From positions 62,001-126,000 of the forward strand of contig JABSRP010000011.1 of assembly GCA_013215145.1 (NCBI GenBank): 64,000 bases of DNA. The letters are read 5' to 3'. A program made the position numbers and the translations under genes. Below the pieces are notes generated by a model. It searched no databases. It was not told the origin of the DNA and saw only the letters and a list, made by a program, of their open reading frames with translations. The DNA comes from Pseudobacteriovorax sp. GTDB taxonomy: Bacteria > Bdellovibrionota_B > Oligoflexia > Oligoflexales > Oligoflexaceae. Of the stretch, positions 39,266 to 58,858 are shown one piece after another; position 1 is the stretch's first letter; each line of letters starts with the position of its first letter.

Positions 39266-40270
39266 TTAGCCCTTATCAGTTCTGGCATTTTGATAGCTTT
39301 CTCTCAATTTTTCAAACCCCTCTACCATACTCACTTTTGGTGTGTACCGGAGATCCTGTCTTACCTGTTTGCTTGAGAACCAATGGGACGTAGCTAACTG
39401 TTTGACGACGAACTTGGTCAAGGGAGGCTCCTTTCGAATCTGTAGCAAACCATAAACAAACTCCAAGGCTCCTCCAACTAGAAGGGCAATCCCATAGGAT
39501 ATTCGTTTGTTTAGTGGCTTCAAGCCGGCGCTCGCCAGGATAGTATTGATCAGCTTTTCTGTAGGCCAGGGCTCTTGATTGGTGATGAAATAAGCCTTGC
39601 CATTAATCGCTGCCTCTGGTTTTAGTTGGTCCAAAGCTTGGATATGAGCTGCTGCTGCATTATCGATGAAAACAGCGTCGACCTTAGCACTAGATCGTCC
39701 AATAAACCTAAGTTTGCCTGCCTGATAGGACTTTATGAGTCGTGGTGCTAAATGATTATCGCCGGGCCCCCATATCAAGTGAGGCCTTAGTGAAGTGACA
39801 GATAATGAAGGGGACTTCGCGTTTAAAACCAGACGCTCTGCTTCAGCTTTAGTTTTTGGATAATGTGCATCGTAGGTCTGAGGATAAGGGGCGCTTTCAT
39901 CAATGCCTTCTTGATCATCGCCTCCAAATACAACACTTGGTGAGCTAGTATAGACGAGTTTTGGTACCTTCAATAGCTGGCAGGCATTGACGACGTTTTT
40001 GGTGCCAACGACATTAGCTTCGTAGTACTCGCGATAAGCTCCCCAAACCCCAGCTTTGGCTGCTGTGTGAATAACAGCATCACAACCTTCCATAGCTTTT
40101 TTAACGAGATTAAAATTAGCTATGCTCCCGCGAAAGCAGGTGACTCCGGGTTGTTCCAGTTCAGGGTACCGCCCACGATTGATGGTATGAACTTCGTCCC
40201 CTCTAGCGAGCAGGAGTTTTACAATAGCCGACCCTAGGAAACCGCCGCCGCCGGTTACAAAAACCTTCAA
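39266..40270 (-). CDS. oleD: OleD, NAD(P)-dependent 2-alkyl-3-ketoalkanoic acid reductase
   Basis: A 334-residue extended short-chain dehydrogenase. The start is the TTG at 40270, which overlaps the oleC stop as TTGA and has AAGGA upstream. The Rossmann motif 'VTGGGGFLGSAIV' is at the N terminus, and the catalytic 'YTSSPSVVFGG' and YPKTK (YxxxK) follow. OleD reduces the 2-alkyl-3-keto acid made by OleA to the beta-hydroxy acid used by OleC. It is the last gene of the oleABCD operon. Confidence 0.88.
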   Translation of the reverse strand: MKVFVTGGGGFLGSAIVKLLLARGDEVHTINRGRYPELEQPGVTCFRGSIANFNLVKKAMEGCDAVIHTAAKAGVWGAYREYYEANVVGTKNVVNACQLLKVPKLVYTSSPSVVFGGDDQEGIDESAPYPQTYDAHYPKTKAEAERLVLNAKSPSLSVTSLRPHLIWGPGDNHLAPRLIKSYQAGKLRFIGRSSAKVDAVFIDNAAAAHIQALDQLKPEAAINGKAYFITNQEPWPTEKLINTILASAGLKPLNKRISYGIALLVGGALEFVYGLLQIRKEPPLTKFVVKQLATSHWFSSKQVRQDLRYTPKVSMVEGFEKLRESYQNARTDKG

Positions 40271-41919
40271 TGTCTTATTTCCTTTTCTGCCCAAATGGCA
40301 AGTTTCTCACGAAATATTTTAGAGTTGTGCCTGATATCTACGGGAAAGCTTTTGTGAAACAAAACGCGATTGATATCTTTAGTTTCGGGAAACTTTTTGC
40401 CCTCGTTCAATAGCTCTTCTGTTAGTTTTTGCCTTCTTTGTTTGCTCAAAGGCACTAGTGTCTCGACACAAAGAACTGGGGATTTGTATTTTCCTGTTCT
40501 AGATAAGCCTACTATAGCGCTACGAGAGACATCTTTGTTCTGATTGAAGATAGACTCTCCGGGAATGGTGTAGATATCACGCCCAGGTTCTACTGCGACA
40601 CGATGAGTTTTGCGGCCGCAAAACCATAATCGGCCTTCAGAGTCGAGGTAGCCTAGGTCACCCATGCGGTGAACGGTACGTCCAGAGTCATCAATTTTCG
40701 CCAGTAAGTTCGCCTGTGGTCTTCCGAAATATGAGGCTGTCACTTGAGGACCTAAGACGGTGATCTCTCCGATTTCGCCTTGAGAGCAGAGTAAATCATC
40801 TGACCACGTATCGATAGGTTCATCGGTCACTCGAATGATTCTGACTTTAATGGAAGGTACGGGATGCCCGACGCAAACTCCTGAACCAGTCGCAGTCCGT
40901 TTTTGTATGTCGCTGTGAAGTAGAGAGTCACTCGAGGTGATGGCAACGGGCAATGATTCTGTAGCGCCATAAGGTGTATAGATAGGACAAGACTCCGGCA
41001 AAATAGCCTTAAGGGCCGTCATAGTGCTAGCGGGAACTGGCGCTCCAGCCGAAATCACACGGCGTAAGCTTGTAAAACTTTTGTCTGCACTACTACTATG
41101 TTGGCTTAGTTTCTTTAGGAGTGCAGGGGAACCAAACATATTTGTAACCTGGAAGGTCTTAGCCGCGAGAAAGATCTTATGCGGATCGACCTGGGCTGGC
41201 CTGGTAAAATCCATTTCTGGGATAACCGCCGTCATTCCTAAGGCAGGAGCAAACAAAGCAAATAGTGGGAAGGTGCAAAGATCGATTTCCCCTGGTTCGA
41301 TGTCAAACGCCCGGCCGAGAGCGTCAATCTGAGCGCGAAAGTTCTCATGAGTGTAAATCGCCCCCTTGGGTATCCCAGTACTGCCGCTAGTGAAAAGTAT
41401 AGCAGCGATGTCTGGCAGTGACTTTGGCAATGTTGTAGAGCTTTCTGTGCGTCCCCTAGCACTTGCTTTGGCGAAAGAATCAGTACATCCGAAGAGGTTT
41501 TTTCCAACCGTCAAGGTCTTCTTCCACTTGCCGGGTCGCCAGCGAAGGATATGTCGTGCCAAGTGGGCCTTATTGATCCCCATAAAATAGTCTGGATCGG
41601 CCTCTTCGATACACTTACCAAAATTTTTAACACCTATGCCTGGATCAATAAACACAGGAGCAATATTGGCGCGAAACAAGGCAAACGTGCAGATAAAGAG
41701 CTCGAGGGAAGGGGGAATCATCATGGCCGCTCGCGTTCCGGGAGCGTATCCCGACTGTAAAAGGCCTCTTGCTAACTCATCGGCTCTACTGTCAAGATCC
41801 TCGTAGGTAATATGAGAATGGCGCATATGGCCAAGACTATCACGCCCCTTAGTTACGACGATCGCCTTTTGCTTTGGGTGTTTTAGGGCCATACGCTTGA
41901 GGTGATCTGCAATGTTCAC
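40267..41919 (-). CDS. oleC: OleC, beta-lactone synthetase (AMP-forming ligase family)
   Basis: A 550-residue ANL-superfamily enzyme. The P-loop 'TSGSTGIPKG' is at 177-186, 'YTPYGATESLPVAI' follows, and 'RMGDLGYLDSEGRLWFCGR' is the hinge region. OleC adenylates the beta-hydroxy acid and closes it to a cis-beta-lactone. It overlaps oleD by the TTGA junction and lies 12 bases after oleB. Its length matches known OleC proteins. Confidence 0.9.
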   Translation of the reverse strand: MNIADHLKRMALKHPKQKAIVVTKGRDSLGHMRHSHITYEDLDSRADELARGLLQSGYAPGTRAAMMIPPSLELFICTFALFRANIAPVFIDPGIGVKNFGKCIEEADPDYFMGINKAHLARHILRWRPGKWKKTLTVGKNLFGCTDSFAKASARGRTESSTTLPKSLPDIAAILFTSGSTGIPKGAIYTHENFRAQIDALGRAFDIEPGEIDLCTFPLFALFAPALGMTAVIPEMDFTRPAQVDPHKIFLAAKTFQVTNMFGSPALLKKLSQHSSSADKSFTSLRRVISAGAPVPASTMTALKAILPESCPIYTPYGATESLPVAITSSDSLLHSDIQKRTATGSGVCVGHPVPSIKVRIIRVTDEPIDTWSDDLLCSQGEIGEITVLGPQVTASYFGRPQANLLAKIDDSGRTVHRMGDLGYLDSEGRLWFCGRKTHRVAVEPGRDIYTIPGESIFNQNKDVSRSAIVGLSRTGKYKSPVLCVETLVPLSKQRRQKLTEELLNEGKKFPETKDINRVLFHKSFPVDIRHNSKIFREKLAIWAEKEIRH

Positions 41920-41931
41920 AAAGTCTTCCTC

Positions 41932-42807
41932 CTAATGACGGACAAAACTGTGCATGCGTTCTACGATATCATCGTGAGAATCTTCTACGACGAAGTGACC
42001 TGAATCAGGGTAGGTATGAACCTCAGCATGAGGAAAGTACTCGCGCCACCTGGTTAGAAATTTGTCGTCGAACACAAAGTCTTTCTCGCCCCAAAGGATC
42101 AACAAGGGTTTGTCAGACAGGGTTGATAACCTCTTTTCTACGTCATTCACGACGGACCAAGCTTGATCGTCTTTCGTCAAAGGGATGTCTTTGACAAACC
42201 TGTGGACAGCGAGTCGATTCTTCCAGTTATTATAAGGTGCTAGGTACCCGCGTTTTTCTTCGGCCGACAGACTCTTTTTTGTACAGCAGGTTAGGGTTGC
42301 CCCCTTGCTGAATGCATTGAAGCCCCTTACGAGGATCTCACCAAGAAGGCCTGTTCGACACATTCTAATAGACATCGGCAACTGCAACCCTTTGGGATTA
42401 TGAAATGCTGCGGTGTTAAATACCACGAGGCTCTTGATAAGCTCAGGAAACCTTGTGGCAAAGGTAAATCCAATCATGCCACCCCAATCATGGACAACTA
42501 ATGTGATATCTTTGAGGCCCAATGACGTCACAAGGCTTTCCAGGTCTTGAACGCGTCTCTCTAACGTGAAGTCGTACTGGGAGTCATCGGGCTTCTCGCT
42601 GAGTCCACAACCGATATGATCTGGTGCGATCACTCGATGGCTGGTGCTGAACTCTTTGATTAAGTTCCGGTAGTAGAAGGACCATGTGGGGTTGCCATGA
42701 ATCATCAGGATGGGATCGCCTTCGCCTTCATCCACGTAGTGCATACGATGGGAGTCGACGACGTGATACTGCGGTTGAAACGGATACATTTCCTTTGAGA
42801 CTACCAT
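41932..42807 (-). CDS. oleB: OleB, beta-lactone decarboxylase (alpha/beta hydrolase)
   Basis: A 291-residue alpha/beta hydrolase of the haloalkane-dehalogenase-like group. The motif 'IHGNPTWSFYYRNL' forms the oxyanion region, and 'VVHDWGGMIGF' has nucleophile Asp107 with the following Trp. 'DSGHFVVED' has the catalytic His at about 271. OleB opens the beta-lactone and releases CO2 to give the cis-olefin. The ATG is preceded by a G-rich ribosome site, and its start overlaps the oleA end by 7 bases. Confidence 0.88.
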   Translation of the reverse strand: MVVSKEMYPFQPQYHVVDSHRMHYVDEGEGDPILMIHGNPTWSFYYRNLIKEFSTSHRVIAPDHIGCGLSEKPDDSQYDFTLERRVQDLESLVTSLGLKDITLVVHDWGGMIGFTFATRFPELIKSLVVFNTAAFHNPKGLQLPMSIRMCRTGLLGEILVRGFNAFSKGATLTCCTKKSLSAEEKRGYLAPYNNWKNRLAVHRFVKDIPLTKDDQAWSVVNDVEKRLSTLSDKPLLILWGEKDFVFDDKFLTRWREYFPHAEVHTYPDSGHFVVEDSHDDIVERMHSFVRH

Positions 42808-43844
42808 TCCACCCCCAACATTAGGCAGTTAAGCCCAGAGCCAATGCCAAGAAATCCCACGCGATCTCCTTTAACCAAAAAGTTTTGTTCTGCAGCGATC
42901 GCGGCCGTAAGAGGTAGCGACACCGTACCCATGTTACCTAGGCGATCAAAGGTAGGAAAGTCTATGGCTTCGGGAAGCCCTAAGGCCTTTAGAATACTGG
43001 ACCTGTGCCCTTTGCTCACTTGATGGGATATGGTTTTATCAATGGCCTCGTGGGCCCATTTTAACTCAGCTAAAAGAGCCTGCCATGTGTTGATACCAAG
43101 CTGGACACCGTACTTCATGACGTTGACTGCGTCGGTCATAAGGAATTGTTCCAGAACTTTTTCGGGAAGCCTTCGGACTCCCCAGCGACACAACTCATGA
43201 TGGCGAGTATCACTGCGATTAGCGCCACCGATAAGTCGATGACCGAGGCCTTGGCCCTTGGCTTCGCTGGATAGGACAATCGCAACGGCTCCTGATCCGC
43301 CTGTAAGTGTTGCGAGGGTCTCTTTAAAAAAGTCAATATTTCGATTTGCCAACATCTTTTGAATCGTATCTTCGTTGATTTCTCTGGCGGACTCGCAAGA
43401 TACCACCATGCCGACATCTACCTGACCCAGCTCAATGCGGTTAGCTATTTCGATGATTCCATTGAGAACCCCAAGGCATGCGTTACTAAGATCGTAAACC
43501 ATCGCCTGATCTTTCAGTCCGAGTTTATGGGCTACTCGACAGGCAGTGGCCGGTTCGTAGTAATCACGACAAACGCCCGCGTAGATCAAGATATCGACAT
43601 CTTCGCGGCTATAGGGAGTGCTACGGAGGGCATTCTCGGCTGCTACAGTAGCACCATCAGAGACTTGAAAGTTCTCCGGCCACCAACGACGCTCTTTGAT
43701 CCCAGTCAAAAACTCGAGTTGGCCCTTAGGAACGCGAAGGCTTTCATAAACAGGTTGGATTCGTTCTTCAATCTCTTTTGTTGATATCACCGTGTCAGGA
43801 AGGTGGTAACCAATCGCATCCAAATAGACATTTTTATATCTCAT
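42801..43844 (-). CDS. oleA: OleA, head-to-head thiolase-type condensing enzyme
   Basis: A 347-residue thiolase-superfamily protein resembling FabH but of the OleA type. The active site is Cys123 in 'DLSNACLGVLNG', with Glu97 in 'YYEPATACR' 26 residues earlier, the same spacing as Cys143/Glu117 of Xanthomonas OleA. His274 and Asn304 are 30 residues apart, again as in OleA. It condenses two acyl thioesters without decarboxylation to a 2-alkyl-3-keto acid. It is the first gene of the operon and diverges from pfaD. The usual substrates are acyl-CoAs; here the neighbouring Pfa synthase suggests polyunsaturated chains. Confidence 0.9.
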   Translation of the reverse strand: MRYKNVYLDAIGYHLPDTVISTKEIEERIQPVYESLRVPKGQLEFLTGIKERRWWPENFQVSDGATVAAENALRSTPYSREDVDILIYAGVCRDYYEPATACRVAHKLGLKDQAMVYDLSNACLGVLNGIIEIANRIELGQVDVGMVVSCESAREINEDTIQKMLANRNIDFFKETLATLTGGSGAVAIVLSSEAKGQGLGHRLIGGANRSDTRHHELCRWGVRRLPEKVLEQFLMTDAVNVMKYGVQLGINTWQALLAELKWAHEAIDKTISHQVSKGHRSSILKALGLPEAIDFPTFDRLGNMGTVSLPLTAAIAAEQNFLVKGDRVGFLGIGSGLNCLMLGVEW

Positions 43845-44144
43845 AGACTCCCCAAAATGCGCCGTATGGTCTAATCTCGACGCATCGTAACCAGAACTTA
43901 CTGCAACTTAGTCCTTCATAGTGCAACAACTTGGCCAGCTAATCATGCTTTTTTTGCTCAAATTGACGACCCGCAGGTCTTCGACCCTAACATTCGACGT
44001 CGCGCGAGAATAAATCAAGCTCTTTTGCCTTTACTGCTACGATTCGACGCAAGGGTTGTATCGTAAATGTTTTTTAAAAGCTAGGAGGAGCCGTTTGCAG
44101 CAGAGTTTTTTAGCTTCTCCAACAAAAACCTGCGTGATAACCTT
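43845..44144. promoter_or_regulatory. Divergent ole/pfa intergenic region
   Basis: A 300-base region that must hold promoters for both operons. The sequence TCGAC occurs four times on the plus strand, at 43877, 43981, 43994 and 44044, three of them as TCGACG. An 8-bp palindrome CGACGTCG lies at 43995-44002. This clustering suggests a common regulator site. No -10/-35 pair was strong enough to name. Confidence 0.5.
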
Positions 44145-44166
44145 ATGGCCGTCGATTTACAGGTAA
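44095..44166 (+). other. Possible 23-codon leader ORF overlapping the pfaD start
   Basis: The strong ribosome site AGGAGGAG (44083-44090) has no start in the pfaD frame nearby. A TTG at 44095, 4 bases after it, opens a 23-codon frame that ends at TAA 44164-44166, 19 bases inside pfaD. The pfaD ATG at 44145 has no good ribosome site of its own. Translational coupling through the leader is possible. A sequence error near the start is an alternative. Confidence 0.35.
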
Positions 44167-45758
44167 AAGATGTCATACCATCAAGTAGACGCAGAAATGG
44201 ACCGAACTCTCTTGATCTGCTGCAGAGGAGCCTTTGTATGATACCCGTGACAGAAGTCATTCCATCTCTTTGGAGTTTTCAACAACCGCATAACCTTCCT
44301 AGTGACGAAGGCTACCTAAGCTTACCTGCTACCCCATTGCGGGCATTCGGGTCTTATGAGTTTTGTCGGGAACTAAATGTTTCCATTCCCTACGTTTCAG
44401 GAGCTATGGCTAACGGAATCGCTAGTCCCGAGCTTGTCATTGCTATGGCCCGTGGACGTCTGTTGGGTTTTTACGGTGCTGCTGGTTTGACCATCCCTAC
44501 TATCACTGAAGGGATTGAAACAATTATAAAGGCCGTTGGCGATAAAGCCTTTGGTGTGAATCTAATTCATAATCCAAGCGAACCTCATTGGGAGTGGGAC
44601 TTAGCAAAGCTATTGATCCAGAAAGGTATCGACGTGATCGAAGCGTCAGCCTTTATGAAAATCACTGAACCTTTAGTTTATTTTCGTTGCAAGGGTTTGA
44701 GTCGTTCTAAGGACGGCAAGGTCGTTGCTAAAAACAAGATTATGGCTAAGATTTCTCGTGGTGAGCTTGCCATTAAATTTATGCAGCCGCCGGAAGAAAA
44801 GCTATTAGATTCACTGAAAACAAAGGGGTTGCTGACAGAAGAAGAGATTTCATGCGCCCGTGAGATTCCCTTGGCCCAGTATATTACTGTGGAGTCAGAT
44901 TCGGGCGGTCATACGGATAATCGGCCAGCGTTAACTCTGTTTCCGGCCATGCAGTCTCTAGCCCAAAAAGTTCAAAATGATTTTGACTACGAGCAACCAT
45001 TGAGACTCGGACTGGCCGGAGGTATCGCGACTCCACAAGCCGTAGCGTCTGCGATTGCGATGGGGGCTTCTTATGTTGTCACAGGCAGTATTAATCAGGC
45101 TTGTTTAGAATCAGGAAGCAGCGATCCTGTGAGAAAAATGCTTTCGGAGGTAGACCAAGCTGATGTCGTCATGGCTCCAGCAGCAGATATGTTTGAGATG
45201 GGAGTCGAAGTCCAAGTCATGAAGAAGGGAACTATGTTCCCAATGAGGGCTAAAAAGCTTTTCGAGATTTATAAAACTTATGATGGGCTAGAAAGCATTC
45301 CGGAGGCGACCAAAACTCAGCTAGAAAAGCAAATCTTTCGGATGACTTTAGATGATGTCTGGGAAGAAACTAAAAAGTTTTTTCAAAGCAGGAACCCCGA
45401 ACTGCTCAAAAAATGTGAATCGAGACCCAAGGTGAAGATGGGATTGGTATTTCGTTGGTATCTGGGCCTTTCTTCTCGTTGGGCAAATCAGGGGGTCGAC
45501 GATCGGAAGCTTGATTACCAGGTGTGGTGTGGCCCTTCTATGGGGGCGTTCAATGCCTGGACGGAAGGCAGTTACCTTGCTGATCCAGAAGAGCGCTCGG
45601 TAGTGACCGTTGCCCATAATTTATTTCTTGTGGCCTTCGCATTGTATCGCCTTAATTTTCTAAAGGCTCAGGGATACTCCACAGAATTGGTGGAACGAAC
45701 CATAAATAAACCTCTCACGCGTGAAGTTATTGCACAACTATTACAGGAAGACATATGA
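44145..45758 (+). CDS. pfaD: PfaD, enoyl reductase of the polyunsaturated fatty acid synthase
   Basis: A 537-residue FMN-dependent enoyl reductase of the 2-nitropropane dioxygenase fold. Strong PfaD signatures include 'YVSGAMANGIASPELVIAMA', 'ESDSGGHTDNRPALTL', 'VVTGSINQAC', 'APAADMFEMGVEVQVMKKG' and 'FRWYLGLSSRWANQG'. It reduces the enoyl intermediates where the chain is saturated in each PUFA synthase cycle. It is the first gene of the pfaD-pfaA-pfaC operon, the same order as the myxobacterial pfa1-pfa2-pfa3, and overlaps pfaA as ATGA. Confidence 0.93.
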   Translation: MAVDLQVKDVIPSSRRRNGPNSLDLLQRSLCMIPVTEVIPSLWSFQQPHNLPSDEGYLSLPATPLRAFGSYEFCRELNVSIPYVSGAMANGIASPELVIAMARGRLLGFYGAAGLTIPTITEGIETIIKAVGDKAFGVNLIHNPSEPHWEWDLAKLLIQKGIDVIEASAFMKITEPLVYFRCKGLSRSKDGKVVAKNKIMAKISRGELAIKFMQPPEEKLLDSLKTKGLLTEEEISCAREIPLAQYITVESDSGGHTDNRPALTLFPAMQSLAQKVQNDFDYEQPLRLGLAGGIATPQAVASAIAMGASYVVTGSINQACLESGSSDPVRKMLSEVDQADVVMAPAADMFEMGVEVQVMKKGTMFPMRAKKLFEIYKTYDGLESIPEATKTQLEKQIFRMTLDDVWEETKKFFQSRNPELLKKCESRPKVKMGLVFRWYLGLSSRWANQGVDDRKLDYQVWCGPSMGAFNAWTEGSYLADPEERSVVTVAHNLFLVAFALYRLNFLKAQGYSTELVERTINKPLTREVIAQLLQEDI

Positions 45759-48700: not shown

Positions 48701-51700
48701 CAGAGCCAAACGATTTCCTCTAACATCTCAAGGCGGGAGAAACGCATCGTGAAACAAGACAAAGATCAGAATCACAGCCCAATTCCAGCGGACTCCTTTG
48801 GCAGGCATTTACTCGCAATGCAGAAAATGCAACAGCAAAGTGCAGACCTTCATCGTCAGTTTTTGGAAAATCAGGCTAATTCCCAGCAGATGTTTTTCGA
48901 GTTACTTAGAGAGTTTTCACAACTCGAGGAAACCTCGGTGCAAGCGCCCCAAGATACTTTGCGAAGGGGGGGGACTGAAGCCTTTGTGGAAAATACCTTA
49001 CCATCGGAGCCGACATCCTTTTCTTTGCCGACTGGTGGAGAGCCGCATGCATTGACCATCGATCAGTCAAGCTCTGAGCAGCGGTCTGGTGGATTCGAGA
49101 GTCGTGCAGCAAGCGAGACCGCATCCTCTGCTCAAACACGAGCTCCTGCAAAGCCTCAATCACCGACGCCAAGAGCTTCGGTGGCTAGTACAGGCGATAA
49201 GGGACGAATGGAAACCGATCGAAAGACAGCACCATCTCAACCATCGGCAGCAACAGAAGTCCTCAAAATTGTGTCTGATGCAACGGGATATCCCATCGAA
49301 TCTCTCAATCTGGATATGGATCTGGAAGAAGATTTGGGGATCGACTCGATAAAACGTGTTGAGATATTTTCTCTGCTTCAAGAGAGCTTTCCAATACTAC
49401 AATCCATGGCTCCTGAGGAGTTATCTGAGCTAGCGACCCTTGCCGATATTATTGTAGCCGCAGATGGTCATGAAAAAGCGGAATTATCACAATCGGTCTC
49501 GGTAACTGCGTCAGCGGTTACGGAAGAAACTACTACGAGCTTGAATACTGAGTCTTCAGCGGATCGCGAGCAAAAGATTTTGGCAGTTATCTCTGACAAG
49601 ACTGGTTATCCTATGGAATCCTTGATAGGCGATATGAGCTTAGAGGACGATTTAGGAATCGACTCGATTAAGCGTGTTGAAATTATTTCGGACCTCCAAG
49701 AGGCGTTTCCCATTTTAGCGGGATTGAGTGCCGAAGAGCTTTCCGAAGCATCAACGATTAGTGATTTGGTAGAGTTGACCGGAGGTAGTGATAAAGACTC
49801 TGCAACGGTATCGCCAGTACCTACAGCAAAACAGGACTTGTCATCATCCATAACTCCATTGACGCCTTCACCATCTGAGTCACAGGCCATGGATGCGAAT
49901 GAAGCTATGCAAAAGGTACAAACTGTTATAGCCGAGAAGACGGGATATCCTGTGGATTCTCTTTCTCCAGAAATGAATCTTGAAGAAGATTTAGGTATTG
50001 ATAGTATAAAAAGGGTAGAAATTCTTTCCGACCTTGGTGAGTCCTTCCCTAAAATTGCTGCGGCGACACAAGATGAGCTCGTAGAATTGGAGTCGATTGA
50101 GGACATTGTTGGGTTTGTAACGGGAGAAACATCCAGTAATGTAGCGGAAGATGTCCCTCAAGTTGCTCAACCCATAAGTAAAGAAACTATTGAAGCTCCG
50201 ATAGCTGAGGAAGCACCAAGCTTAGAAGAGGAGCTCCCTCCACAAGATATCGTCCGATCTTATGGGATTTCGATGGTAACCAAAGATCTGGAGCCAGAGG
50301 CGAAACCCCTTGGTCTATCAAAAGGAGCAAAGATTTGGATATGCGATGATGGTAGTAATCTAGCTAGAAATCTAGTCATGAAGCTTCGCGACCAAGGATA
50401 TATGCCACGATTGGTTTCGATTGCTTTTGTTGACCGATTGCAGGCACCGGATGATTTAGATGGTCTCATAATCCTGGGGCCTCTCAAACTAGAAGGAAAT
50501 CCACACAAGTTTCTACTCAATTGCTTTAAACTGGTAAAACTGTGTGCACAAGCGCTTGACGGGTCAGAAGCAAAACTATTGGCAACAGTAAGTCGCAATG
50601 AAGGTGAACTTGGCATTCTTGGTTTGGATTCCTTGTCTCAGGTTTATAGTGGTGCTCTTGCTGGGCTTTCCAAGTGTGTTAGGCATGAATGGGAAGGCGT
50701 ACGAGCCACACATATTGATTTGAGTCGCGACTTTGCTAATGGCTCTGCTGTGGCTGAAAGATTAATTGATACTTTATTCCGATTTGATCTGCCTGAAATT
50801 GGACTTTTTGAGTCTTATTACAAAGTTCCAGAGCTCTTGATCAAGGATATCAGCGAAGAAACTCCCGCGGTTTTTGAGACCAATGATTTGGTTTTGATCA
50901 CGGGCGGAGGTCGTGGTGTTACGGCAGCAATAGCTAAAGAACTGTCTTCGCAACCGATTAAGATTTGTCTATGGGGTCGCACTTCGATAGAAGAGAAGCT
51001 CCCTGAATTTATTAAGGTGGATATGGATGATAGCGCCCTCAAGGCAGCTATCCATTCATCAGGACTTGCTGCGACTCCTAAAGAGATTAACGATCTATTC
51101 CATAAATTCAAAAGACAATTAGAGTTGGAGAATACTCTCGAAACGTTAAGGTCGGGACAGGCCACGGTAATTTACCAAAGCGTGGATGTGTCCTCCGAGC
51201 AGAGTATCCGCAAAGGCCTAAGTCAGCTTGTTGAGGCAGAAGGTCCGATTGTGGGTCTGATCCATGGTGCAGGAGTACTTGCAGACAAATTTATCAATCA
51301 GTTGAGCGAGAAGGAATTTTCCTTTGTTGCAGATACAAAAATAAGAATTCTAACTGAATTAGAAAAGCAATGTGGGCAAAGTCTGAAACAGTTAGTCTTT
51401 TTCTCATCTTCTACCGCTCGCTTTGGACGTAAAGGACAGGTGGCCTACGCTGTTGCCAATGAGGTTTTGAATAAGTATGCCCAGTACTTTAAGCGTCTCC
51501 ATCCAACTTGTCGGGTCTCTTCCCTAAATTGGGGGCCTTGGGATGGCGGTATGGTTGATTCGGGGCTGAAAAACCTATTTGCCGCGGAAGGAATTGGTTT
51601 GATTCCTTTAGCTGAAGGTGCCGGCCTACTTGGGCGTCAAATGTCTAGGGCTGAGCAGACAGAGCTTGTCGTCATGGCGACTCCAGCTGGTGCTGAGGAA

Positions 51701-52579
51701 TCCGAAAGAGTGGAAGCAGGTCGCATAGATTTTCAAACTTGGCCGATACTAAATTCTCATGTCCTGAGACAAAAGGGTGTTGTTCCCACGGTACTACTTA
51801 TCGAAACGATGCTGGCCGAGGTGAAAAGTCAGCAGTCGGGAACGTTTGTTAGCTTCAAAAACTTCAAGATACTAAAGGGTATAGCCTTAAATTCGGATGA
51901 AATTTATTCCTATCGAGTTGAGTTTCAAGAAACGGAATCCGTAGCAACCGGCGATATTAAAGGGTTTTTGACGACCATGTCGGCGAAGGGTGCCCAGGCG
52001 GATAAATGGTTTCCAGTGGCCAAGGCAAATATTTACTTGTCAAACGATGCTGCATGGAAACCTCACGACGCAGCACCGTCCATCGAAATAGAAGGCTCGT
52101 GGTCGATGCCTGAGTTGGACGACCTCTACGAGATTTATCTGTTTCATGGTGAGGAGCTACAAGGAATTTCCGGTATTCGATCCTTCGGGCCTGAGGGGAT
52201 TGTCGGTACCTCGCTTCCTAGTCCTGAGCCACGAAAGTGGATTAAAGGATTCGAGCATGATGCTTGGTTTACTGATCCCATGGTAATTGACGTCGCCTTC
52301 CAGCTCGCTGTTGTCTGGAGTGAGCGCAGGTTCGGTTCTAAATCGCTTCCGACATCGATTGAAAGTTTCCAGCAATTCCGGCCGTTCCCAAAACAGGGCT
52401 GCGAAATTCGGGTTCAGTTCACCGAAAGGATAGGACAGTCTTTTAAGGCTTCCATTGAGTTTGTGTTAGAAAACAAGTTGATTGCAAGTATTTCTGGCTA
52501 TGGCGCCATCACAGACGATTCCCTTCGGGAGTCCTTTGCGATGAATAAGGCTATTCCATTATCTGCCGAACGTGATTAA
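45755..52579 (+). CDS. pfaA: PfaA, polyunsaturated fatty acid synthase subunit (KS-MAT-ACPx3-KR-DH)
   Basis: A 2274-residue multidomain enzyme. Ketosynthase at about 1-455 has Cys207 in VDAACASS, His342 and His382. Malonyl/acyl transferase at about 565-880 has Ser663 in GHSYGE. A coiled-coil-like linker (about 1010-1060) leads to three ACP domains with DSIK phosphopantetheine sites, Ser1198, Ser1304 and Ser1417. The ketoreductase has the nucleotide motif TGGGRG near 1716 and Tyr1898 in 'VAYAVANEV'. A C-terminal PS-DH-type hot-dog domain (about 2000-2274) follows with a HxxxxxGxxP motif. It builds the polyene chain iteratively. The number of ACPs is at the low end of the 3-9 range known. It needs a phosphopantetheinyl transferase, which is not in the window. 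Confidence 0.95.
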   Translation: MSTEKEPIAIVGMSCLFPDCENLQEYWTAIKHGSDFVKDIPCTHWDPADYYDEDPKKRDHTLAKTGAFLKPYPFNPIEYGITPSALEATDTTQLLGMVVAKQALENAGYTSDKEFDRNRVSCILGVTGTLELVIPLGARLGHPKWKKALQKAGLPQDQIDDILDDVSDSFVDWQEASFPGLLGNVVAGRIANRLDLGGSNSVVDAACASSLAAVRTAIMELQTGRSDVVVTGGMDTFNDIFMYMCFSKTPALSPTGNAKPFDADGDGTILGEGLGAVILKRLSDAEADGDRIFGVIRGVGASSDGKGKAIYAPDSDGQKKALTAAYKEAGVEPRTIDLLECHGTGTKVGDGIELTALREVFTASNSDERWCTLGSVKSQIGHAKAAAGVAGLIKAVMALYHKVLPPTIKVKTPHPKLVNSPFIIRNKPAPWLHSKEHPRRAGVSAFGFGGSNYHMVLEEYDSRKLEYDWDTGSHLLVASSSSKKDLISKLGSYFKQLESSADPKYLAEWREQLVSTDRHRLMILSSSMESLCQSLEKAIKDLANDQPLSSDESQILYTESESTPRLAVVFAGQGSQHPNMLSQFACQSPIAQEKLTLTNDLMDGTLFPVLYPGQAFTKDERKAQEAHLAATAFAQPAIGALSAGIWETLSGFGIKAQMFGGHSYGELTALYAAGAFSDQDFLKVSACRGELMAGAASDLGGMIVVEAEYNDVAKLLSEINSSLVIANHNSPDQVVVSGDDDDLDAFKVAAEAKGFTPRVLRVGAAFHSPKMRGLVGPFADYLDHTDIGTLSAPVFANCNGQPYENSKKDIVRVLSEQLAQEVRFVDQIKNMKDAGADLFLEIGPSSILSRLVGKILPEQRDKILSFDAQKNSTRQLESILGKLFVAGVDIDWQNFAKSWQPEYRKPAKFSVPITGANYWDTSKRPERKRRYVPKPEIAQPVHQNSETSDAPTLAKRQGAQVNPIQQTAKKDENAKLPSSLGQQSQTISSNISRREKRIVKQDKDQNHSPIPADSFGRHLLAMQKMQQQSADLHRQFLENQANSQQMFFELLREFSQLEETSVQAPQDTLRRGGTEAFVENTLPSEPTSFSLPTGGEPHALTIDQSSSEQRSGGFESRAASETASSAQTRAPAKPQSPTPRASVASTGDKGRMETDRKTAPSQPSAATEVLKIVSDATGYPIESLNLDMDLEEDLGIDSIKRVEIFSLLQESFPILQSMAPEELSELATLADIIVAADGHEKAELSQSVSVTASAVTEETTTSLNTESSADREQKILAVISDKTGYPMESLIGDMSLEDDLGIDSIKRVEIISDLQEAFPILAGLSAEELSEASTISDLVELTGGSDKDSATVSPVPTAKQDLSSSITPLTPSPSESQAMDANEAMQKVQTVIAEKTGYPVDSLSPEMNLEEDLGIDSIKRVEILSDLGESFPKIAAATQDELVELESIEDIVGFVTGETSSNVAEDVPQVAQPISKETIEAPIAEEAPSLEEELPPQDIVRSYGISMVTKDLEPEAKPLGLSKGAKIWICDDGSNLARNLVMKLRDQGYMPRLVSIAFVDRLQAPDDLDGLIILGPLKLEGNPHKFLLNCFKLVKLCAQALDGSEAKLLATVSRNEGELGILGLDSLSQVYSGALAGLSKCVRHEWEGVRATHIDLSRDFANGSAVAERLIDTLFRFDLPEIGLFESYYKVPELLIKDISEETPAVFETNDLVLITGGGRGVTAAIAKELSSQPIKICLWGRTSIEEKLPEFIKVDMDDSALKAAIHSSGLAATPKEINDLFHKFKRQLELENTLETLRSGQATVIYQSVDVSSEQSIRKGLSQLVEAEGPIVGLIHGAGVLADKFINQLSEKEFSFVADTKIRILTELEKQCGQSLKQLVFFSSSTARFGRKGQVAYAVANEVLNKYAQYFKRLHPTCRVSSLNWGPWDGGMVDSGLKNLFAAEGIGLIPLAEGAGLLGRQMSRAEQTELVVMATPAGAEESERVEAGRIDFQTWPILNSHVLRQKGVVPTVLLIETMLAEVKSQQSGTFVSFKNFKILKGIALNSDEIYSYRVEFQETESVATGDIKGFLTTMSAKGAQADKWFPVAKANIYLSNDAAWKPHDAAPSIEIEGSWSMPELDDLYEIYLFHGEELQGISGIRSFGPEGIVGTSLPSPEPRKWIKGFEHDAWFTDPMVIDVAFQLAVVWSERRFGSKSLPTSIESFQQFRPFPKQGCEIRVQFTERIGQSFKASIEFVLENKLIASISGYGAITDDSLRESFAMNKAIPLSAERD

Positions 52580-52590
52580 GGGGAATCCTA

Positions 52591-55500
52591 TTGGAAATTG
52601 CCATTGTTGGAATGTCAGGTCAGCTGCCCGGTTGCTCTTCTATTGAAGAGTTCTGGGAAGCAGTCAAAGACGGTAAGTCGTTAGCCTCGGATGTCCCTCG
52701 ATACCGTTGGGGCCGACCAGAAAAATACATCTCTAAAGGAGATACCAAAGATCGGGCCTTTCATGCTCGAGGTTATTTCGGCAGAGATTCCTACGAAATG
52801 CCTGTGGATTTTACTGAGAGTGCCGAAAGCTGGGAGCGTTTAGATCCTTTGATTCAGATGGCTATCAGGGTGTCTTCAGATGCTCTCGCCGATAGTCTTA
52901 GCAAAAATTCAGCCCTGCACCCACGCACTGCAGCTGTTTTTGGAAATATCGCACTACCAACGGAGAAATCCGGTCGTATCGTTGATCAATACCTGAGGCA
53001 TGCGCTATTCCATCGTCTCGGAGTAGATAACAACGAAAAAACCATCGAAGATATTGATGCTAGAAACTACTTTCCTGCAAGTATGCCAGCCATCATGGTA
53101 GCCAAAACTTTTGGCTTTGGTTTAGGGGGATATAGTGTTGATGCGGCCTGCGCCTCATCTTTATATGCCTTAGAACAGGCCTGCGATATGCTGCTTGAAA
53201 ACAAAGCTGATATGGTTTTGGCTGGTGGATTTAATCGAGCAAATTCACTTTATACCCAGATGGGATTCACCCAGTTAGGGGCGTTGTCACCCACAGGTCA
53301 CAGTCGACCCTTCGACGAACGCGGCGATGGTCTGATTGTTGGTGAAGGGGGAGCCGTTTTTGTTCTTAAGCGGTTGCTGGATGCGGAATCTTCTGGAGAT
53401 AGAATCTACGGAGTCATTAGAGGGATCGGTCTAAGCAACGATCGCTCAGGAAAGCTTATGGCACCAGATTCTGAAGGGCAAACCAGAGCTATGCGCGACG
53501 CCTATCAGGCGGCGGGTTGGACGCCTCAGGACATAGATTATATAGAGTGTCACGCGACAGGAACTCCAAAAGGAGATCGTACAGAGCTGGAGAGTCTCAG
53601 ACAGCTCTACTCTGGTCGGCGTGGATCGGCGTCCCTAGGTTCCGTTAAAGGCAATATCGGCCATCTTTTAACGGGAGCCGGTGCCTCGGGTTTGCTGCGA
53701 CTACTTCTAGCAATGAAAAACAAGACTAAGCCTCCGTTACTCAAAGAAACGCAAGTGATCGACTCGTTTCCCTGGAAAGACTCAGGACTATCAGTGAGCT
53801 TGCGCCAAGAACCTTGGGATGTTCAAGAACATGCTAAGACAAGAAAAGCTGCTCTCTCGGGTTTTGGTTTTGGCGGAATAAACGCTCATGTCCTCATTGA
53901 AGAGTACAATAGTGATAGATCTCGGAGCGAAGTGATTTCGAAAGGTTCAGCCAATCGTCGTGTCGCTCTGGTAGCCATGGGTGAGCATCGCCCTGAGACT
54001 ACTGATCCCTGTCCCAAATGGTTTGGTTTTGAAGCATCACCCTTCTATCAGAAAAAAGTCGCTGCCGGTCTCAAGGTGACGACGAGTCAATTTGATGATT
54101 TTAACATTCCTTACGCCTCCTTCCGAATACCCCCTAAAGAAGTCCAAGATATGCTTCCTCAGCAGATCGGTGCACTTCTAAGTGTTAATGCAGCTATGAA
54201 AGGCCTTGATTTGGAAGCAAATCAACTTGAAAAAGCTGCAGTCTATGTTGGGGTGGAATTAGACGGAATGGTGAATGCCTACCTGAGTCGCTGGTGGTTT
54301 GACGGGCTAGATACGGAAGGCATGTTGGAAATCTCCGGCGAAGGCCATGAGGAAAAAGCTGAAATATGGATCGAGCAAGCTAAAGATGCTTTGCTTACCC
54401 AATTGAACGCTAATAAGGTGATTGGGTCTCTAGCAAGCATTGTTGCCTCTCGGATTGGTCGGGAATATCGCGTGGGTGGTTCGGCGATTACGGTTTCGCA
54501 AATGGATGGGTCTGGATTGCGGGCATTGTCTTTGGCACTGCGGGATATCTCTAGTGGTAAACGAAACTTGGCCCTTGTCACTGGAGTCGATACGCCAGCA
54601 GAAGTATTTTCTGCCCTAAATTGGAGCTCGTTGTTTAATGAAGCGAGCGCTGAGCATAATTATACGGATTCTGCGATAACTCTGGTTCTCGAAGACTATG
54701 AAACAGCAAAGGCAAAGGGACATCCCATTCTTTGCGTTATAGACGATGGCGATGCAAATTTAGTTTCGCGTGCGTCCTCGACCTCTGGTTCAATCCATTA
54801 CGGCGCTTGCCAAGGGATTCAAACCTTGGCCCAGTTTATTTCGGCGGACTCCGGTCAAGACACTAAAGGGTTTCACTACTCTGGACCTTTTGATGCCGGT
54901 TTTCAGTTTCAAATAGAAAAACAATCGCCGACTCTACCTAAACATTTTGCGGTGTCATCGGACACAAAAGCATTTAAAGTCATCGTTAGAGGTGGCGAGG
55001 TTGATGTATCGCATCTGAAGCGTACCTCACCCATAGCTGGAGCGCAAAAGTCTCCAAATTATGGGGCACTCAAAAGTCATACTGCTGCGGAACGGCCGCT
55101 GAGAAAGGACCTTATGGATTCTCACATTTACAGCCATATTTTAAGTGAAATGGGTCGCACCAATGAAGCACAAGTTGCGGCACAGCAGGCTTTCGAATCA
55201 TTAACCCATGCGTCTTTACAGAATCAAACTGAGTTATTAAAACAAGCCATGGAGGCTAAAGCCCCCACAGCTGTTACCTATGATGAATCATTAGTTGATT
55301 TTGATGGTGTGATCGGTAGCGAAACACAACGTGTAGATCATGAGCAAGCAATAGACAATCATATTGCCTATCAGCCAATGAATCCGAAAGAGGCTTTGTG
55401 GGATTACGAAGCTTGTGAGACCTTTGCCCTTGGTAAGATTGGTGATGTATTCGGACCGGAGTTTGCTCATGTGGATGAATACCCCACTCGTGTCAGACTG

Positions 55501-57669
55501 CCTTCAGATCGTCTGCTACTCTGTCACAGGATTATGGATATTTCCGGTGAAAAGTTCTCTCTGGGAAGCGGAACCTTGGTAACAGAGCACGATGTCAATC
55601 CAGATGCTTGGTATTTGGATCAAAATAAAATCCCTACGTCTATTGCCATCGAATCGGGGCAAGCTGATTTGCTACTTTCCGCTTGGCTGGGCGCTGATGA
55701 CCATACCAAAGGACTGGCCTTGTACCGCTTGTTAGATGCGGAAGTGACATTTTATTCGGCATTGCCATCGGCAGGCGAATATATCCGTTATGACATTCAT
55801 ATCGATAATTTCTTCAAGCGTGGGTCCACTCTTCTGTTTAGGTTTGGATTTTCCGCCTATGTCGGAGATAAAAAACTCATGACCATGAGACATGGATGTG
55901 CTGGATTCTTTACAAGTGAGGAGTTGGATCAGGGGCGCGGTATTATCAAATCCCAAGAAGAAGTTGAGCCTGGGGTCTTTACGGGTGGCTACCAACATCG
56001 CTTCGCCTTTGAAAACGAAGTTCTGTCAGCTGATGAATTAGACTATATTCGAGGGGGAAATCTTGCCAAAGCTTTTGGAGATGACTTCCAAGACCTTGAT
56101 GTTAGATTACCTGTTGGCATTCCAGGAGGAGATTTACGTCTCGTTCATCGTATCACTGAAATGAGCTCTCATGGTGGTAAATTTGGAGTTGGATTAGTGA
56201 TAGGAGAGGCTGATATTCAGCCTGACGATTGGTTTTTGACCTGTCACTTTAAAGACGATCATGTCATGCCTGGTACTCTGATGTACGAATGCTGTCTCCA
56301 TACATTGCGTGTGTTTTTACTAAGGCAAGGCCTTATTGGAGAGACTGGTGAGGTCACCATCGATCCAGTCCAAGGTGAGATGTCCAAACTATTGTGCCGA
56401 GGACAGGTCCTTCCGCGGACGAAGTCGGTCCAATATGAACTTCATATCCGTGAGATCGGTTTCAATCCCAACGCTTATGCTTTGGTAGATGCTTATATGT
56501 ACTCCGATCACCATTGCATTGTAGATATACGCAATATGACCTTGCAAATGACTGGTGTTACTAAGGAGTCTGTTGATAAGGTTTGGGGAAGTTCCGAACA
56601 AGAGTTGGTATTTTCCGATGCTATGATTAAAGAGTTTGCTGCAGGTCATCCTTCAAAGGCCTTTGGCGCACCCTACAAAAAATTCGATCATGATCGAAAA
56701 ATGGCGCGACTTCCTCGTGGTAGATTGCAATGCATTAACGAGGTGATCTCAACTTCAGCGAAACCTTTTGTCTTAAAAGAAGGCTCAGAAGCAACGGCGA
56801 TTTTTTATAATCAGTCGGACTCTTGGTTTTACGACAACCCAAGTAAACAGATGCCTTACAGTATTCTGTTGGAAGTAGCCTTACAGCCGTGCGGTTGGAT
56901 GGCCGCTTATATGGGCTCCGCCCTGGCCAGTGAAAACGAAGATTTGTTTTTCCGCAATTTGCAGGGGGCGTCTCGTTACTCCAAATCAGTGACTCCAGAT
57001 ATGGGGCCTCTAACCGCTCATGCTAAAGTCACAAAGATATCTCAGGCGTCGGGAATGATTATCCAAGAGTACAGCTATCGCGTGATGGCTGGTGACGATG
57101 AAATCTATTCTGGGACAACAGCATTTGGATTCTTCTCGGCAAAAGCACTAGCGGAACAACAAGGTATCACTCCCCAGACTCAGCGTTTCACGGATTTGAG
57201 TTCGGAATGGATCCCAGTTGGTGTTGACATTCATACCAATCCTCTGAGCTTGATCGATGATTTCAGTCCCCTGAATACAGATGTTGACAAGGCGATAGTC
57301 GCTCGTATGAAAGGACGGTTGTCAGTAGAGGCTAGTCAGTGGTTCTTTCATGACCACTTCTACCAAGATCCAGTTATGCCTGGGTCCTTAGGGCTAGAGT
57401 CCATACTCATGACCGCTTCTGCAGCTGCTAGAGATATTCTTGGGCTTGTCGACACTCCGTTCGCTTTAGCCCCTGGTTCAGAGCAACAATGGGTTTATCG
57501 AGGGCAGGTCTTGCCAGATAATAAGCTGGTAGAGACCGAAATAGAGGTGATATCAGTTGACGAGTCGTCTCAGTCCGTTACTTTTGATGCTTATTTATAT
57601 TGCGATAATCTGGCGATTTATCAAGCGAAGCGCTTTGTCTTAAGGGCGATCAATGATGAAATTGCTTAG
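52591..57669 (+). CDS. pfaC: PfaC, polyunsaturated fatty acid synthase subunit (KS-CLF-DH-DH)
   Basis: A 1692-residue protein with TTG start and AAGGGGA upstream, 11 bases after pfaA. Ketosynthase at about 1-440 has Cys187, His321 and His358. A chain length factor at about 470-830 has Asp639 where the Cys should be, in 'VSQMDGSGL'. Four FabA-like hot-dog units follow: an inactive one near 1000, an active one with His1219 in 'CHFKDDHVMPG', an inactive one near 1400, and an active one with His1589 in 'DHFYQDPVMPG'. This pseudo-DH/DH pairing is the PfaC layout. These units make the cis double bonds. No acyltransferase or AGPAT domain is present, unlike myxobacterial Pfa3. A strong terminator follows. 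Confidence 0.93.
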   Translation: MEIAIVGMSGQLPGCSSIEEFWEAVKDGKSLASDVPRYRWGRPEKYISKGDTKDRAFHARGYFGRDSYEMPVDFTESAESWERLDPLIQMAIRVSSDALADSLSKNSALHPRTAAVFGNIALPTEKSGRIVDQYLRHALFHRLGVDNNEKTIEDIDARNYFPASMPAIMVAKTFGFGLGGYSVDAACASSLYALEQACDMLLENKADMVLAGGFNRANSLYTQMGFTQLGALSPTGHSRPFDERGDGLIVGEGGAVFVLKRLLDAESSGDRIYGVIRGIGLSNDRSGKLMAPDSEGQTRAMRDAYQAAGWTPQDIDYIECHATGTPKGDRTELESLRQLYSGRRGSASLGSVKGNIGHLLTGAGASGLLRLLLAMKNKTKPPLLKETQVIDSFPWKDSGLSVSLRQEPWDVQEHAKTRKAALSGFGFGGINAHVLIEEYNSDRSRSEVISKGSANRRVALVAMGEHRPETTDPCPKWFGFEASPFYQKKVAAGLKVTTSQFDDFNIPYASFRIPPKEVQDMLPQQIGALLSVNAAMKGLDLEANQLEKAAVYVGVELDGMVNAYLSRWWFDGLDTEGMLEISGEGHEEKAEIWIEQAKDALLTQLNANKVIGSLASIVASRIGREYRVGGSAITVSQMDGSGLRALSLALRDISSGKRNLALVTGVDTPAEVFSALNWSSLFNEASAEHNYTDSAITLVLEDYETAKAKGHPILCVIDDGDANLVSRASSTSGSIHYGACQGIQTLAQFISADSGQDTKGFHYSGPFDAGFQFQIEKQSPTLPKHFAVSSDTKAFKVIVRGGEVDVSHLKRTSPIAGAQKSPNYGALKSHTAAERPLRKDLMDSHIYSHILSEMGRTNEAQVAAQQAFESLTHASLQNQTELLKQAMEAKAPTAVTYDESLVDFDGVIGSETQRVDHEQAIDNHIAYQPMNPKEALWDYEACETFALGKIGDVFGPEFAHVDEYPTRVRLPSDRLLLCHRIMDISGEKFSLGSGTLVTEHDVNPDAWYLDQNKIPTSIAIESGQADLLLSAWLGADDHTKGLALYRLLDAEVTFYSALPSAGEYIRYDIHIDNFFKRGSTLLFRFGFSAYVGDKKLMTMRHGCAGFFTSEELDQGRGIIKSQEEVEPGVFTGGYQHRFAFENEVLSADELDYIRGGNLAKAFGDDFQDLDVRLPVGIPGGDLRLVHRITEMSSHGGKFGVGLVIGEADIQPDDWFLTCHFKDDHVMPGTLMYECCLHTLRVFLLRQGLIGETGEVTIDPVQGEMSKLLCRGQVLPRTKSVQYELHIREIGFNPNAYALVDAYMYSDHHCIVDIRNMTLQMTGVTKESVDKVWGSSEQELVFSDAMIKEFAAGHPSKAFGAPYKKFDHDRKMARLPRGRLQCINEVISTSAKPFVLKEGSEATAIFYNQSDSWFYDNPSKQMPYSILLEVALQPCGWMAAYMGSALASENEDLFFRNLQGASRYSKSVTPDMGPLTAHAKVTKISQASGMIIQEYSYRVMAGDDEIYSGTTAFGFFSAKALAEQQGITPQTQRFTDLSSEWIPVGVDIHTNPLSLIDDFSPLNTDVDKAIVARMKGRLSVEASQWFFHDHFYQDPVMPGSLGLESILMTASAAARDILGLVDTPFALAPGSEQQWVYRGQVLPDNKLVETEIEVISVDESSQSVTFDAYLYCDNLAIYQAKRFVLRAINDEIA

Positions 57670-57737: not shown

Positions 57738-58703
57738 TTACTCGAAAACCCAAGGTTTGAAAGTTACCTGCTGATCGCTTTTGACTTTAACTCCTTTGAA
57801 TAGAAACTCGTCAAAAAGCCCAAGAGAAGAACCCGAGAATAGCTCGATTTTATAGGTGCCCGCCTTTAACTCGCCTTCAAAGAAGTTTTCCCCGGAATAG
57901 TCTTCTAACACAGTGACGCTGACAGGAATAAACGTGTTAAATAGATACTCGTAGAATATCATTCTTGTCCCGTTGTGCTGGACATCGCAAACCCCGTCCA
58001 GAGCAATGCTGGTTTGCTGTGAATCCGCCGCAACTGAAAATTCAATGGTGGCTCGTTTGCCTTTAAGAAAGGTTTGGTTATTCAAAACATTTGGTTCGTC
58101 AAGAGCCTCCTCACACACATCTCCTGTGTTTGTGAAGCCATCTCCCAGATGAATAAAATCGCCATTATCGTTTGATCTGTACGCAAATCTCGGAGCGCCG
58201 GTTAGGGCAGCCATGACAGGCTCTTCGCTAGTGTATTCAGTCCCATCCTGATCGATGAGAACAATCTTAATTCGTAGCGCATTGCGCGGAATTTCGAATA
58301 TAAACTGCCAGCGATCTTGATCATCCACCTCATCTTCAATGGAGAATATTTCAACAGCACCTTCAGGATAAATCGCATAGGCTGCCTTGAGCATAACGCC
58401 ATCTAAAGGAATGTTGTTCCCTTCTGGGTCCTGCATAGCACATCCAATAGATTCCGTATCGTCATCGATTTCTGTACTAGCACAGTACAAAAACGCGCCT
58501 CCTACCATAGCTGGTTCGGCAACGGTGATAGCCGTCTCTGCGTCTACCTCGTTAACCGCTTCAGCTGCCTCTAGGTCGGCTGTCGGGGAACTGATTTCTT
58601 CTACTTTTTCGGACTTTTCGGAGCTTTGCAATTGGGCGTCGTTACATGCTGTCAACAGTAGACTTAATGAGGCGCATGCCACTAAGCTAAGTGCTTTTCT
58701 CAT
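57738..58703 (-). CDS. Lipoprotein with the MVGGAFL module
   Basis: A 321-residue lipoprotein starting at the ATG with AAAGGAAAAA upstream. Lipobox 'LLLTAC' with Cys20. An acidic spacer leads to 'VAEPAMVGGAFLYC', a module shared with the lipoprotein at 59.8-61.1 kb. The C-terminal half has paired Cys and a beta-rich pattern ('GTYKIELFSGSS') that could be a carbohydrate-binding-like fold, but no family is assigned. It is convergent with the pfa operon. Confidence 0.65.
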   Translation of the reverse strand: MRKALSLVACASLSLLLTACNDAQLQSSEKSEKVEEISSPTADLEAAEAVNEVDAETAITVAEPAMVGGAFLYCASTEIDDDTESIGCAMQDPEGNNIPLDGVMLKAAYAIYPEGAVEIFSIEDEVDDQDRWQFIFEIPRNALRIKIVLIDQDGTEYTSEEPVMAALTGAPRFAYRSNDNGDFIHLGDGFTNTGDVCEEALDEPNVLNNQTFLKGKRATIEFSVAADSQQTSIALDGVCDVQHNGTRMIFYEYLFNTFIPVSVTVLEDYSGENFFEGELKAGTYKIELFSGSSLGLFDEFLFKGVKVKSDQQVTFKPWVFE

Positions 58704-58858
58704 GATTTTTCCTTTAATGTTTGCTCTGTGAGACATATCGGCTTTTTGTAGGAAAAACGTAATAAATGAGAAAACTGACAATAATATTTGATTGTTGATT
58801 GGAGGTAATTTTTGCGTAAGGATTGGGGCCTTGGCCAATAGGCCTCAGTCCCTCGGTT

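What the first reader, a model, noticed from the sequence alone, without database searches (positions are those of the whole stretch)
39266..57669. Divergent oleABCD and pfaDAC operons form one locus: candidate dedicated polyunsaturated hydrocarbon pathway
The sequence shows a complete oleABCD operon and a complete pfaD-pfaA-pfaC operon leaving one 300-bp intergenic region in opposite directions. Established knowledge: OleABCD joins two acyl thioesters head to head into a long olefin, and in Shewanella the polyunsaturated hydrocarbon hentriacontanonaene depends on both Pfa and Ole proteins. Inference: the side-by-side arrangement suggests co-regulation and a main product that is a long polyene hydrocarbon rather than membrane EPA or DHA.
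Basis: partly seen in the sequence, partly recalled or inferred. Interest (0 to 1): 0.85.

Follow-up and report, generated by a model that had tools for sequence, protein, structure and literature searches.

The report
AT-less polyunsaturated hydrocarbon gene cluster
Two neighbouring gene sets, one building polyunsaturated fatty chains and one joining two chains head to head into a long hydrocarbon, form one conserved pathway; pathways of this kind are known, but this bacterial family has turned the two halves back to back and lost the part that would normally release the fatty acid, which suggests that hydrocarbon is its only product.

Summary
In detail: oleDCBA (39266-43844, minus strand) and pfaD-pfaA-pfaC (44145-57669, plus strand) diverge from a 300-bp gap. 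Chance is excluded. The divergent pair occurs in all seven genomes of the window's family (six contiguous, one split by contig ends). Among 27 genomes from other phyla with the nearest PfaD and a neighbouring pfaA, 25 carry OleA, and in all 24 that can be checked oleA lies directly behind pfaC on the same strand. Window OleA and PfaD fall in ole-linked clades, apart from Xanthomonas OleA and from Shewanella PfaD.

The kind is already known: Geobacter bemidjiensis has pfaDABC-oleABCD in tandem and makes C31:9 (PMC4882568), and OleA taps the Pfa synthase (PMC6463001). The terminal acyltransferase (AT) that releases PUFA is missing here and in the family's other ole-linked PfaC proteins examined, while all seven relatives tested have it. 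In relative G001 the PfaC ketosynthase triad and one dehydratase are also lost.

Best reading: a PUFA synthase whose only exit is OleA, making a long polyene hydrocarbon. Chemistry, co-regulation and product identity were not tested. New variant of a known kind.

The parts
39266..40294 (-). oleD, 2-alkyl-3-oxoalkanoate reductase (NAD(P)-dependent)
   Evidence: PF01073 1e-52. Best NCBIfam models NF042423/NF042422 oxyalk_red, 398/387 bits, below their strict equivalog cut-offs of 580.
40267..41919 (-). oleC, olefin beta-lactone synthetase (AMP-binding)
   Evidence: PF00501. NF006754 669 bits over cut-off 478. NF045786/NF045785 olefin beta-lactone synthetase 619/590 bits, below cut-off.
41932..42807 (-). 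oleB, beta-lactone decarboxylase (haloalkane-dehalogenase-like alpha/beta hydrolase)
   Evidence: PF00561 1e-32. Dehalogenase-like NCBIfam models. Motif HDWGG and a C-terminal His in the translation.
42801..43844 (-). oleA, head-to-head acyl-thioester condensing thiolase
   Evidence: NF006720 466 bits over cut-off 285. Best solved relative is OleA 3row/3s21, E 2.5e-59, with Cys (NACL), the RDYxEP Glu, His (HQVS) and Asn (GN.G) conserved.
43845..44144 (.). 300-bp shared intergenic region from which both operons diverge
   Evidence: Sequence. Not conserved in sequence with the other genus of the family.
44145..45758 (+). pfaD, enoyl reductase
   Evidence: TIGR02814 588 bits over cut-off 449. Solved PfaD 6lkc/4yx6 E 1e-144.
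45755..52579 (+). pfaA, KS-MAT-ACP3-KR-DH
   Evidence: TIGR02813 1377 bits over cut-off 1010. Pfam domains. Three LGIDSIK ACP motifs.
47459..48328 (+). MAT domain of PfaA, the only AT-type domain in the cluster
   Evidence: PF00698, motif GHSYGE
49232..50134 (+). tandem ACP region of PfaA (three ACPs)
   Evidence: PF00550, 3 stretches. Three motifs.
52591..57669 (+). pfaC, KS-CLF-DH-DH, without the AT found in relatives
   Evidence: PF00109/PF02801 and PF07977 x2, no PF00698. KS Cys-His-His triad present, both FabA-type DH motifs present.
54742..55401 (+). 221-residue CLF-to-DH linker, where relatives carry 602-804 residues including the AT domain
   Evidence: Alignment. AT detected in relatives by Pfam and by direct search.
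55402..56550 (+). first FabA-type dehydratase block (DH1) of PfaC
   Evidence: PF07977 at aa 1178-1313, CHFKDDHVMPG
56605..57642 (+). second FabA-type dehydratase block (DH2) of PfaC
   Evidence: PF07977, second stretch. HDHFYQDPVMPG.

Best explanation
The locus is a dedicated polyunsaturated-hydrocarbon pathway. PfaA loads malonyl units on its three ACPs with its own MAT and, with PfaC (dehydration/isomerisation, KS-CLF) and PfaD (enoyl reduction), builds a polyunsaturated acyl chain. The chain stays on the ACP, because this family has lost the PfaB-type terminal acyltransferase that elsewhere releases EPA or DHA. OleA takes two such chains and condenses them head to head into a beta-keto acid, OleD reduces it, OleC closes the beta-lactone and OleB decarboxylates it, giving a long polyene hydrocarbon of the C31:9 type. 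The exact length and number of double bonds are not predictable from sequence. Shown here: gene content, domain content, catalytic residues, conserved linkage, clade membership, and AT absence throughout the family's ole-linked clusters examined. Inferred: substrate, product, OleA as sole exit, co-expression.
For: (1) Divergent ole|pfa is kept in all seven family genomes across three genera. (2) 25 of 27 genomes with the nearest pfaDA clusters carry OleA, and pfaC directly precedes oleA in 24 of 24 checkable ones, from Planctomycetota, Geobacterales, Myxococcota, Elusimicrobiota and others. (3) OleA tree: the OleA proteins of pfa genomes, window included, form a 100/99 clade. Most OleA of the same order without PfaD, OleA of two genomes without PfaA beside PfaD, and Xanthomonas OleA lie outside. 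(4) PfaD tree: the window is in the ole-linked clade (97/97), apart from Shewanella, Persicobacter and thraustochytrid PfaD (100/96). Concatenated tree: the family is one 100/100 clade inside the ole-linked clade. (5) The AT is absent from the family's ole-linked clusters and present, at 45-55% identity to the query AT, in PfaBC of the six other relatives searched. (6) PfaB is the terminal acyltransferase and its deletion abolishes DHA in E. coli (PMC12895367). OleA makes the 31:8 ketone from a Pfa synthase without FadD and probably reads acyl-ACP (PMC6463001). G. bemidjiensis with the tandem cluster makes C31:9 (PMC4882568). (7) In relative G001 the ole-linked PfaC has also lost the KS Cys-His-His triad and DH1, as expected if late elongation is no longer needed.
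Against: No metabolite, expression or enzyme data. Ole-linked relatives in other phyla keep the AT, so coupling to ole does not by itself make the AT useless. An AT could act in trans: PfaA MAT, FabD, or the NRPS/PKS AT on contig C84. G001 has a second, AT-containing pfa cluster not linked to ole, so loss there may reflect redundancy. P. profundum SS9 has ole beside pfa and makes EPA but no detectable polyene hydrocarbon (PMC6463001). The genome is 94% complete, so an unlinked pfaB could be missing from the assembly.
Confidence: 0.66

Rival explanations
1. A dual-output Pfa synthase as in Shewanella: most acyl chains are released as EPA/DHA-like PUFA into membrane lipids by an acyltransferase acting in trans, and OleA diverts a side stream into hydrocarbon.
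For: Shewanella and other C31:9 producers make both (PMC6463001, PMC4882568). PfaC in the window keeps an intact KS triad, CLF and both DH blocks, so full-length PUFA assembly is possible. Three AT-type domains exist in the genome.
Against: No PfaB-type AT in the genome or in the family's ole-linked clusters. PfaB is required for PUFA in the reconstituted system (PMC12895367). PfaD belongs to the ole-linked clade, not the EPA/DHA clade.
Confidence: 0.2
2. The Pfa part makes a different secondary lipid (for example a polyene or hydroxylated acyl chain) that OleACD(B) turns into a beta-lactone or an unusual ketone or olefin, not a C31:9-type hydrocarbon.
For: Pfa-like synthases make many lipids, and products of most types are unknown (PMC3098273). 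OleA/C/D also start beta-lactone natural products (PMC7064751). Only three ACPs here.
Against: A full oleB is present, and beta-lactone clusters are described as lacking oleB (PMC7064751). The nearest characterised tandem cluster makes C31:9 (PMC4882568).
Confidence: 0.1
3. Two unrelated lipid operons that merely neighbour each other: ole uses ordinary FAS-derived chains and pfa makes something else.
For: In Xanthomonas and Stenotrophomonas, Ole uses ordinary FAS chains (PMC6463001). In one related genome, G009, both genes exist unlinked.
Against: Near-universal linkage in this Pfa clade and matched clades of OleA and PfaD.
Confidence: 0.04

Closest known systems
Tandem pfaDABC-oleABCD cluster of Geobacter bemidjiensis and relatives (Type I secondary lipid synthase of Shulse and Allen)
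   Same: Same core gene set, same PfaD and OleA clades as the Geobacteraceae clusters read here, pfa and ole in one locus. G. bemidjiensis makes hentriacontanonaene (PMC4882568, PMC3098273).
   Different: There ole follows pfa on the same strand and the PfaB-type AT is present. Here the operons diverge and the AT is missing.
Shewanella / Photobacterium pfaABCD(E) with oleABCD
   Same: OleA couples to the Pfa synthase to give C31:9 in Shewanella. P. profundum SS9 has the two operons adjacent with pfaT between (PMC6463001).
   Different: Separate PfaB and pfaE, EPA/DHA as main PUFA. PfaD falls in another clade. No gene lies between the operons here.
Xanthomonas / Stenotrophomonas oleABCD
   Same: OleA with the same catalytic residues and the same four-step head-to-head chemistry.
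   Different: Ordinary FAS chains as substrate (PMC6463001). OleA outside the pfa-linked clade.

Membership tests
OleABCD head-to-head olefin pathway | oleA, oleB, oleC and oleD all present with conserved OleA catalytic residues | tested here: met
   OleA Cys, Glu, His and Asn conserved.
OleABCD head-to-head olefin pathway | Makes a long internal olefin | not testable with these tools
   Needs GC-MS
PUFA (Pfa) synthase, canonical pfaABCDE | PfaA KS-MAT-tandem ACP-KR(-DH), PfaC KS-CLF-DH2, PfaD ER | tested here: met
PUFA (Pfa) synthase, canonical pfaABCDE | PfaB-type terminal AT, separate or fused | tested here: not met
   Absent from the cluster and from the 94%-complete genome
PUFA (Pfa) synthase, canonical pfaABCDE | PfaE PPTase in the cluster or genome | tested here: inconclusive
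   Three PPTase-domain hits elsewhere in the genome, none in the cluster. Which one serves PfaA is unknown.
Type I (ole-linked) secondary lipid synthase | PfaD and OleA in the ole-linked clades | tested here: met
Type I (ole-linked) secondary lipid synthase | pfaBC fusion carrying an AT | tested here: not met
Type I (ole-linked) secondary lipid synthase | ole genes directly behind pfaC on the same strand (the layout seen in relatives) | tested here: not met
   Divergent here and in the whole family; collinear in 24 of 24 others

The most novel reading that the evidence does not exclude
A PUFA synthase that has lost its terminal acyltransferase because OleA has taken over as the only off-loading enzyme: a natural, obligatorily Ole-coupled megasynthase that yields hydrocarbon and no free PUFA, with further decay of late-elongation domains (PfaC KS triad, DH1) in relative G001.
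Probability: 0.45. Interest if true: 0.65.

Novelty: new variant of a known kind. Interest (0 to 1): 0.5.

Why it matters
How a Pfa synthase chooses between PUFA and polyene hydrocarbon, and what the terminal AT is for in ole-linked clusters, is open. A natural AT-less cluster makes this directly testable: if it yields hydrocarbon in a host without PUFA, OleA alone suffices as exit. The comparison also shows that, in this Pfa clade, ole and pfa are one conserved unit across several phyla, so the ancestral product of this branch may well be hydrocarbon rather than membrane PUFA.

Tried and rejected
A hidden AT inside window PfaC was considered and rejected: the CLF-DH linker is too short (221 aa) and Pfam and direct searches are negative, while positive controls work. 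The genome's 2421-aa AT-bearing ORF on C84 as a PfaB was rejected: it is an AMP-binding/KS/AT/aminotransferase hybrid beside an NRPS. Plasmid collections gave only PfaD relatives at most 50% identical and no true OleA; Persicobacter, Streptomyces and Azospirillum served as outgroups or context. A shared operator in the intergenic region was sought: only members of the other genus of the family share motifs, so no regulator is claimed. Neighbouring ORFs at 38122-39105, 57738-58838 and 59781-61061 have no counterparts at the family's other loci, so they are not counted as part of the cluster. The organism's name could not be established. A small phylum of 58 genomes with 7.4-Mb members suggests an Oligoflexia-like lineage, but this is only a guess.

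Full report
Observation. Pfam and NCBIfam name each gene as stated. OleA aligns with solved OleA over its full length, with all four catalytic residues kept. PfaD aligns with solved PfaD at E 1e-144. PfaA is KS-MAT-ACP3-KR-DH. PfaC is KS-CLF and two FabA-type dehydratase blocks with an intact KS triad.

More than chance. The window lies in a 7.39-Mb genome of a small phylum (58 genomes held). In its family all seven genomes carry both genes: six have oleA and pfaD divergent on one contig, 0.3 to 2.1 kb apart, and in the seventh both genes sit at contig ends in a way that fits the same layout. Elsewhere in the phylum G009 has both, unlinked; G038 and G042 have PfaD without OleA; nine others have OleA without PfaD. 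Outside the phylum, the 29 genomes with the closest PfaD were examined. Two (Sandaracinaceae, a deltaproteobacterium) lack PfaA beside PfaD. Of the other 27, 25 have OleA, and in 24 the dehydratase end of pfaC lies directly upstream of oleA on the same strand; the 25th is at a contig start. In the 15 loci read further, oleB, and usually oleC and oleD, follow. These genomes were chosen by closeness to the window's PfaD, so they are not a random sample of all pfa clusters.

Trees. OleA of pfa genomes, including the window family, forms a 100/99 clade. Six OleA of the window's own order without PfaD, two from genomes without PfaA beside PfaD, and Xanthomonas OleA are outside. G009, G027 and G030 are inside; G009 has PfaD unlinked, and G027 and G030 have no PfaD. 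PfaD of the window falls in the ole-linked clade (97/97), and Shewanella, Persicobacter, Streptomyces and a thraustochytrid form another (100/96). A concatenated PfaD/PfaA/PfaC tree makes the family one clade (100/100) inside the ole-linked clade (100/100), beside Myxococcota and beside the Planctomycetota/Geobacter/Elusimicrobia group.

The missing part. Relatives in other phyla have 644-804 residues between CLF and the dehydratases (602 in the second pfa cluster of G001), including an AT that Pfam detects. The window and its relatives G004 and G005 have 221-233, with no AT. A search with the AT of the Isosphaeraceae PfaBC found it at 45-55% identity in all six other relatives tested, but in the family found only MAT, FabD or PKS domains at 23-34%, apart from the second pfa cluster of G001, which is not linked to ole. 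The genome's only AT-type domains are PfaA MAT, FabD and an NRPS/PKS hybrid. Since the neighbouring branches tested have the AT, the simplest history is loss, together with the turning of the operons, once on the family stem; this is a parsimony argument, not a formal test. In G001 the ole-linked PfaC has gone further: KS Cys and both His are replaced and DH1 is gone, while the DH2 His and Asp remain.

Mechanism. Literature: PfaB is the terminal acyltransferase and is required for PUFA (PMC12895367). The PfaC KS-CLF is credited with the last elongations (cited there). OleA taps the Pfa synthase, probably at the ACPs, for a 16:4 chain (PMC6463001). A synthase without the AT but with a dedicated OleA should therefore give hydrocarbon and little or no free PUFA. 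That step is inference.

Known or new. Ole-pfa linkage and a hydrocarbon role for Type I clusters were proposed in 2011 (PMC3098273). The tandem cluster of G. bemidjiensis and its C31:9 are reviewed in PMC4882568. What I found no mention of in the held library is the divergent, AT-less form and its conservation in this family; most subscription papers are not held, so this is not proof of novelty. It is therefore a new variant of a known kind, of moderate interest because it makes the role of the AT and of OleA as exit testable.

Noticed in passing
L043:8640-12416 (relative G001, contig C9): The ole-linked PfaC of the nearest relative has lost the KS catalytic triad (Cys to Ser, both His replaced) and the first dehydratase block, while PfaA and PfaD look intact.
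   Followed up: partly
L054 (G001, contig C22): A second pfa cluster in the same relative, with AT-containing PfaBC and not linked to ole. Its PfaD is in another clade with Azospirillum.
   Followed up: partly
L176:1732-6386 (G027; also G030): An oleABCD operon whose OleA belongs to the pfa-linked clade although no PfaD is found in the genome; a PKS-like ORF lies about 8 kb away.
   Followed up: partly
L045/L046/L048, ole-pfa intergenic region: Three relatives of one genus share a block GCTAGCTAAAAAAGGACAGTCCTTATAAGCTC with the palindrome AAGGAC-A-GTCCTT between oleA and pfaD, a possible operator, absent from the window.
   Followed up: no
L119:5247-18045 (G000, contig C84): NRPS followed by a 2421-aa AMP-binding/KS/AT/ACP/aminotransferase hybrid: an unrelated biosynthetic cluster in the same genome.
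   Followed up: no
window 58859-59566 (-): Small protein with ricin-type beta-trefoil lectin repeats, next to two ORFs (57738-58838, 59781-61061) without any Pfam match.
   Followed up: no
L159:6906-8027, L161:9098-10294, L151: OleA of Gemmataceae and two other genomes (Planctomycetota, SCN18) carries an extra insertion after about residue 230.
   Followed up: no
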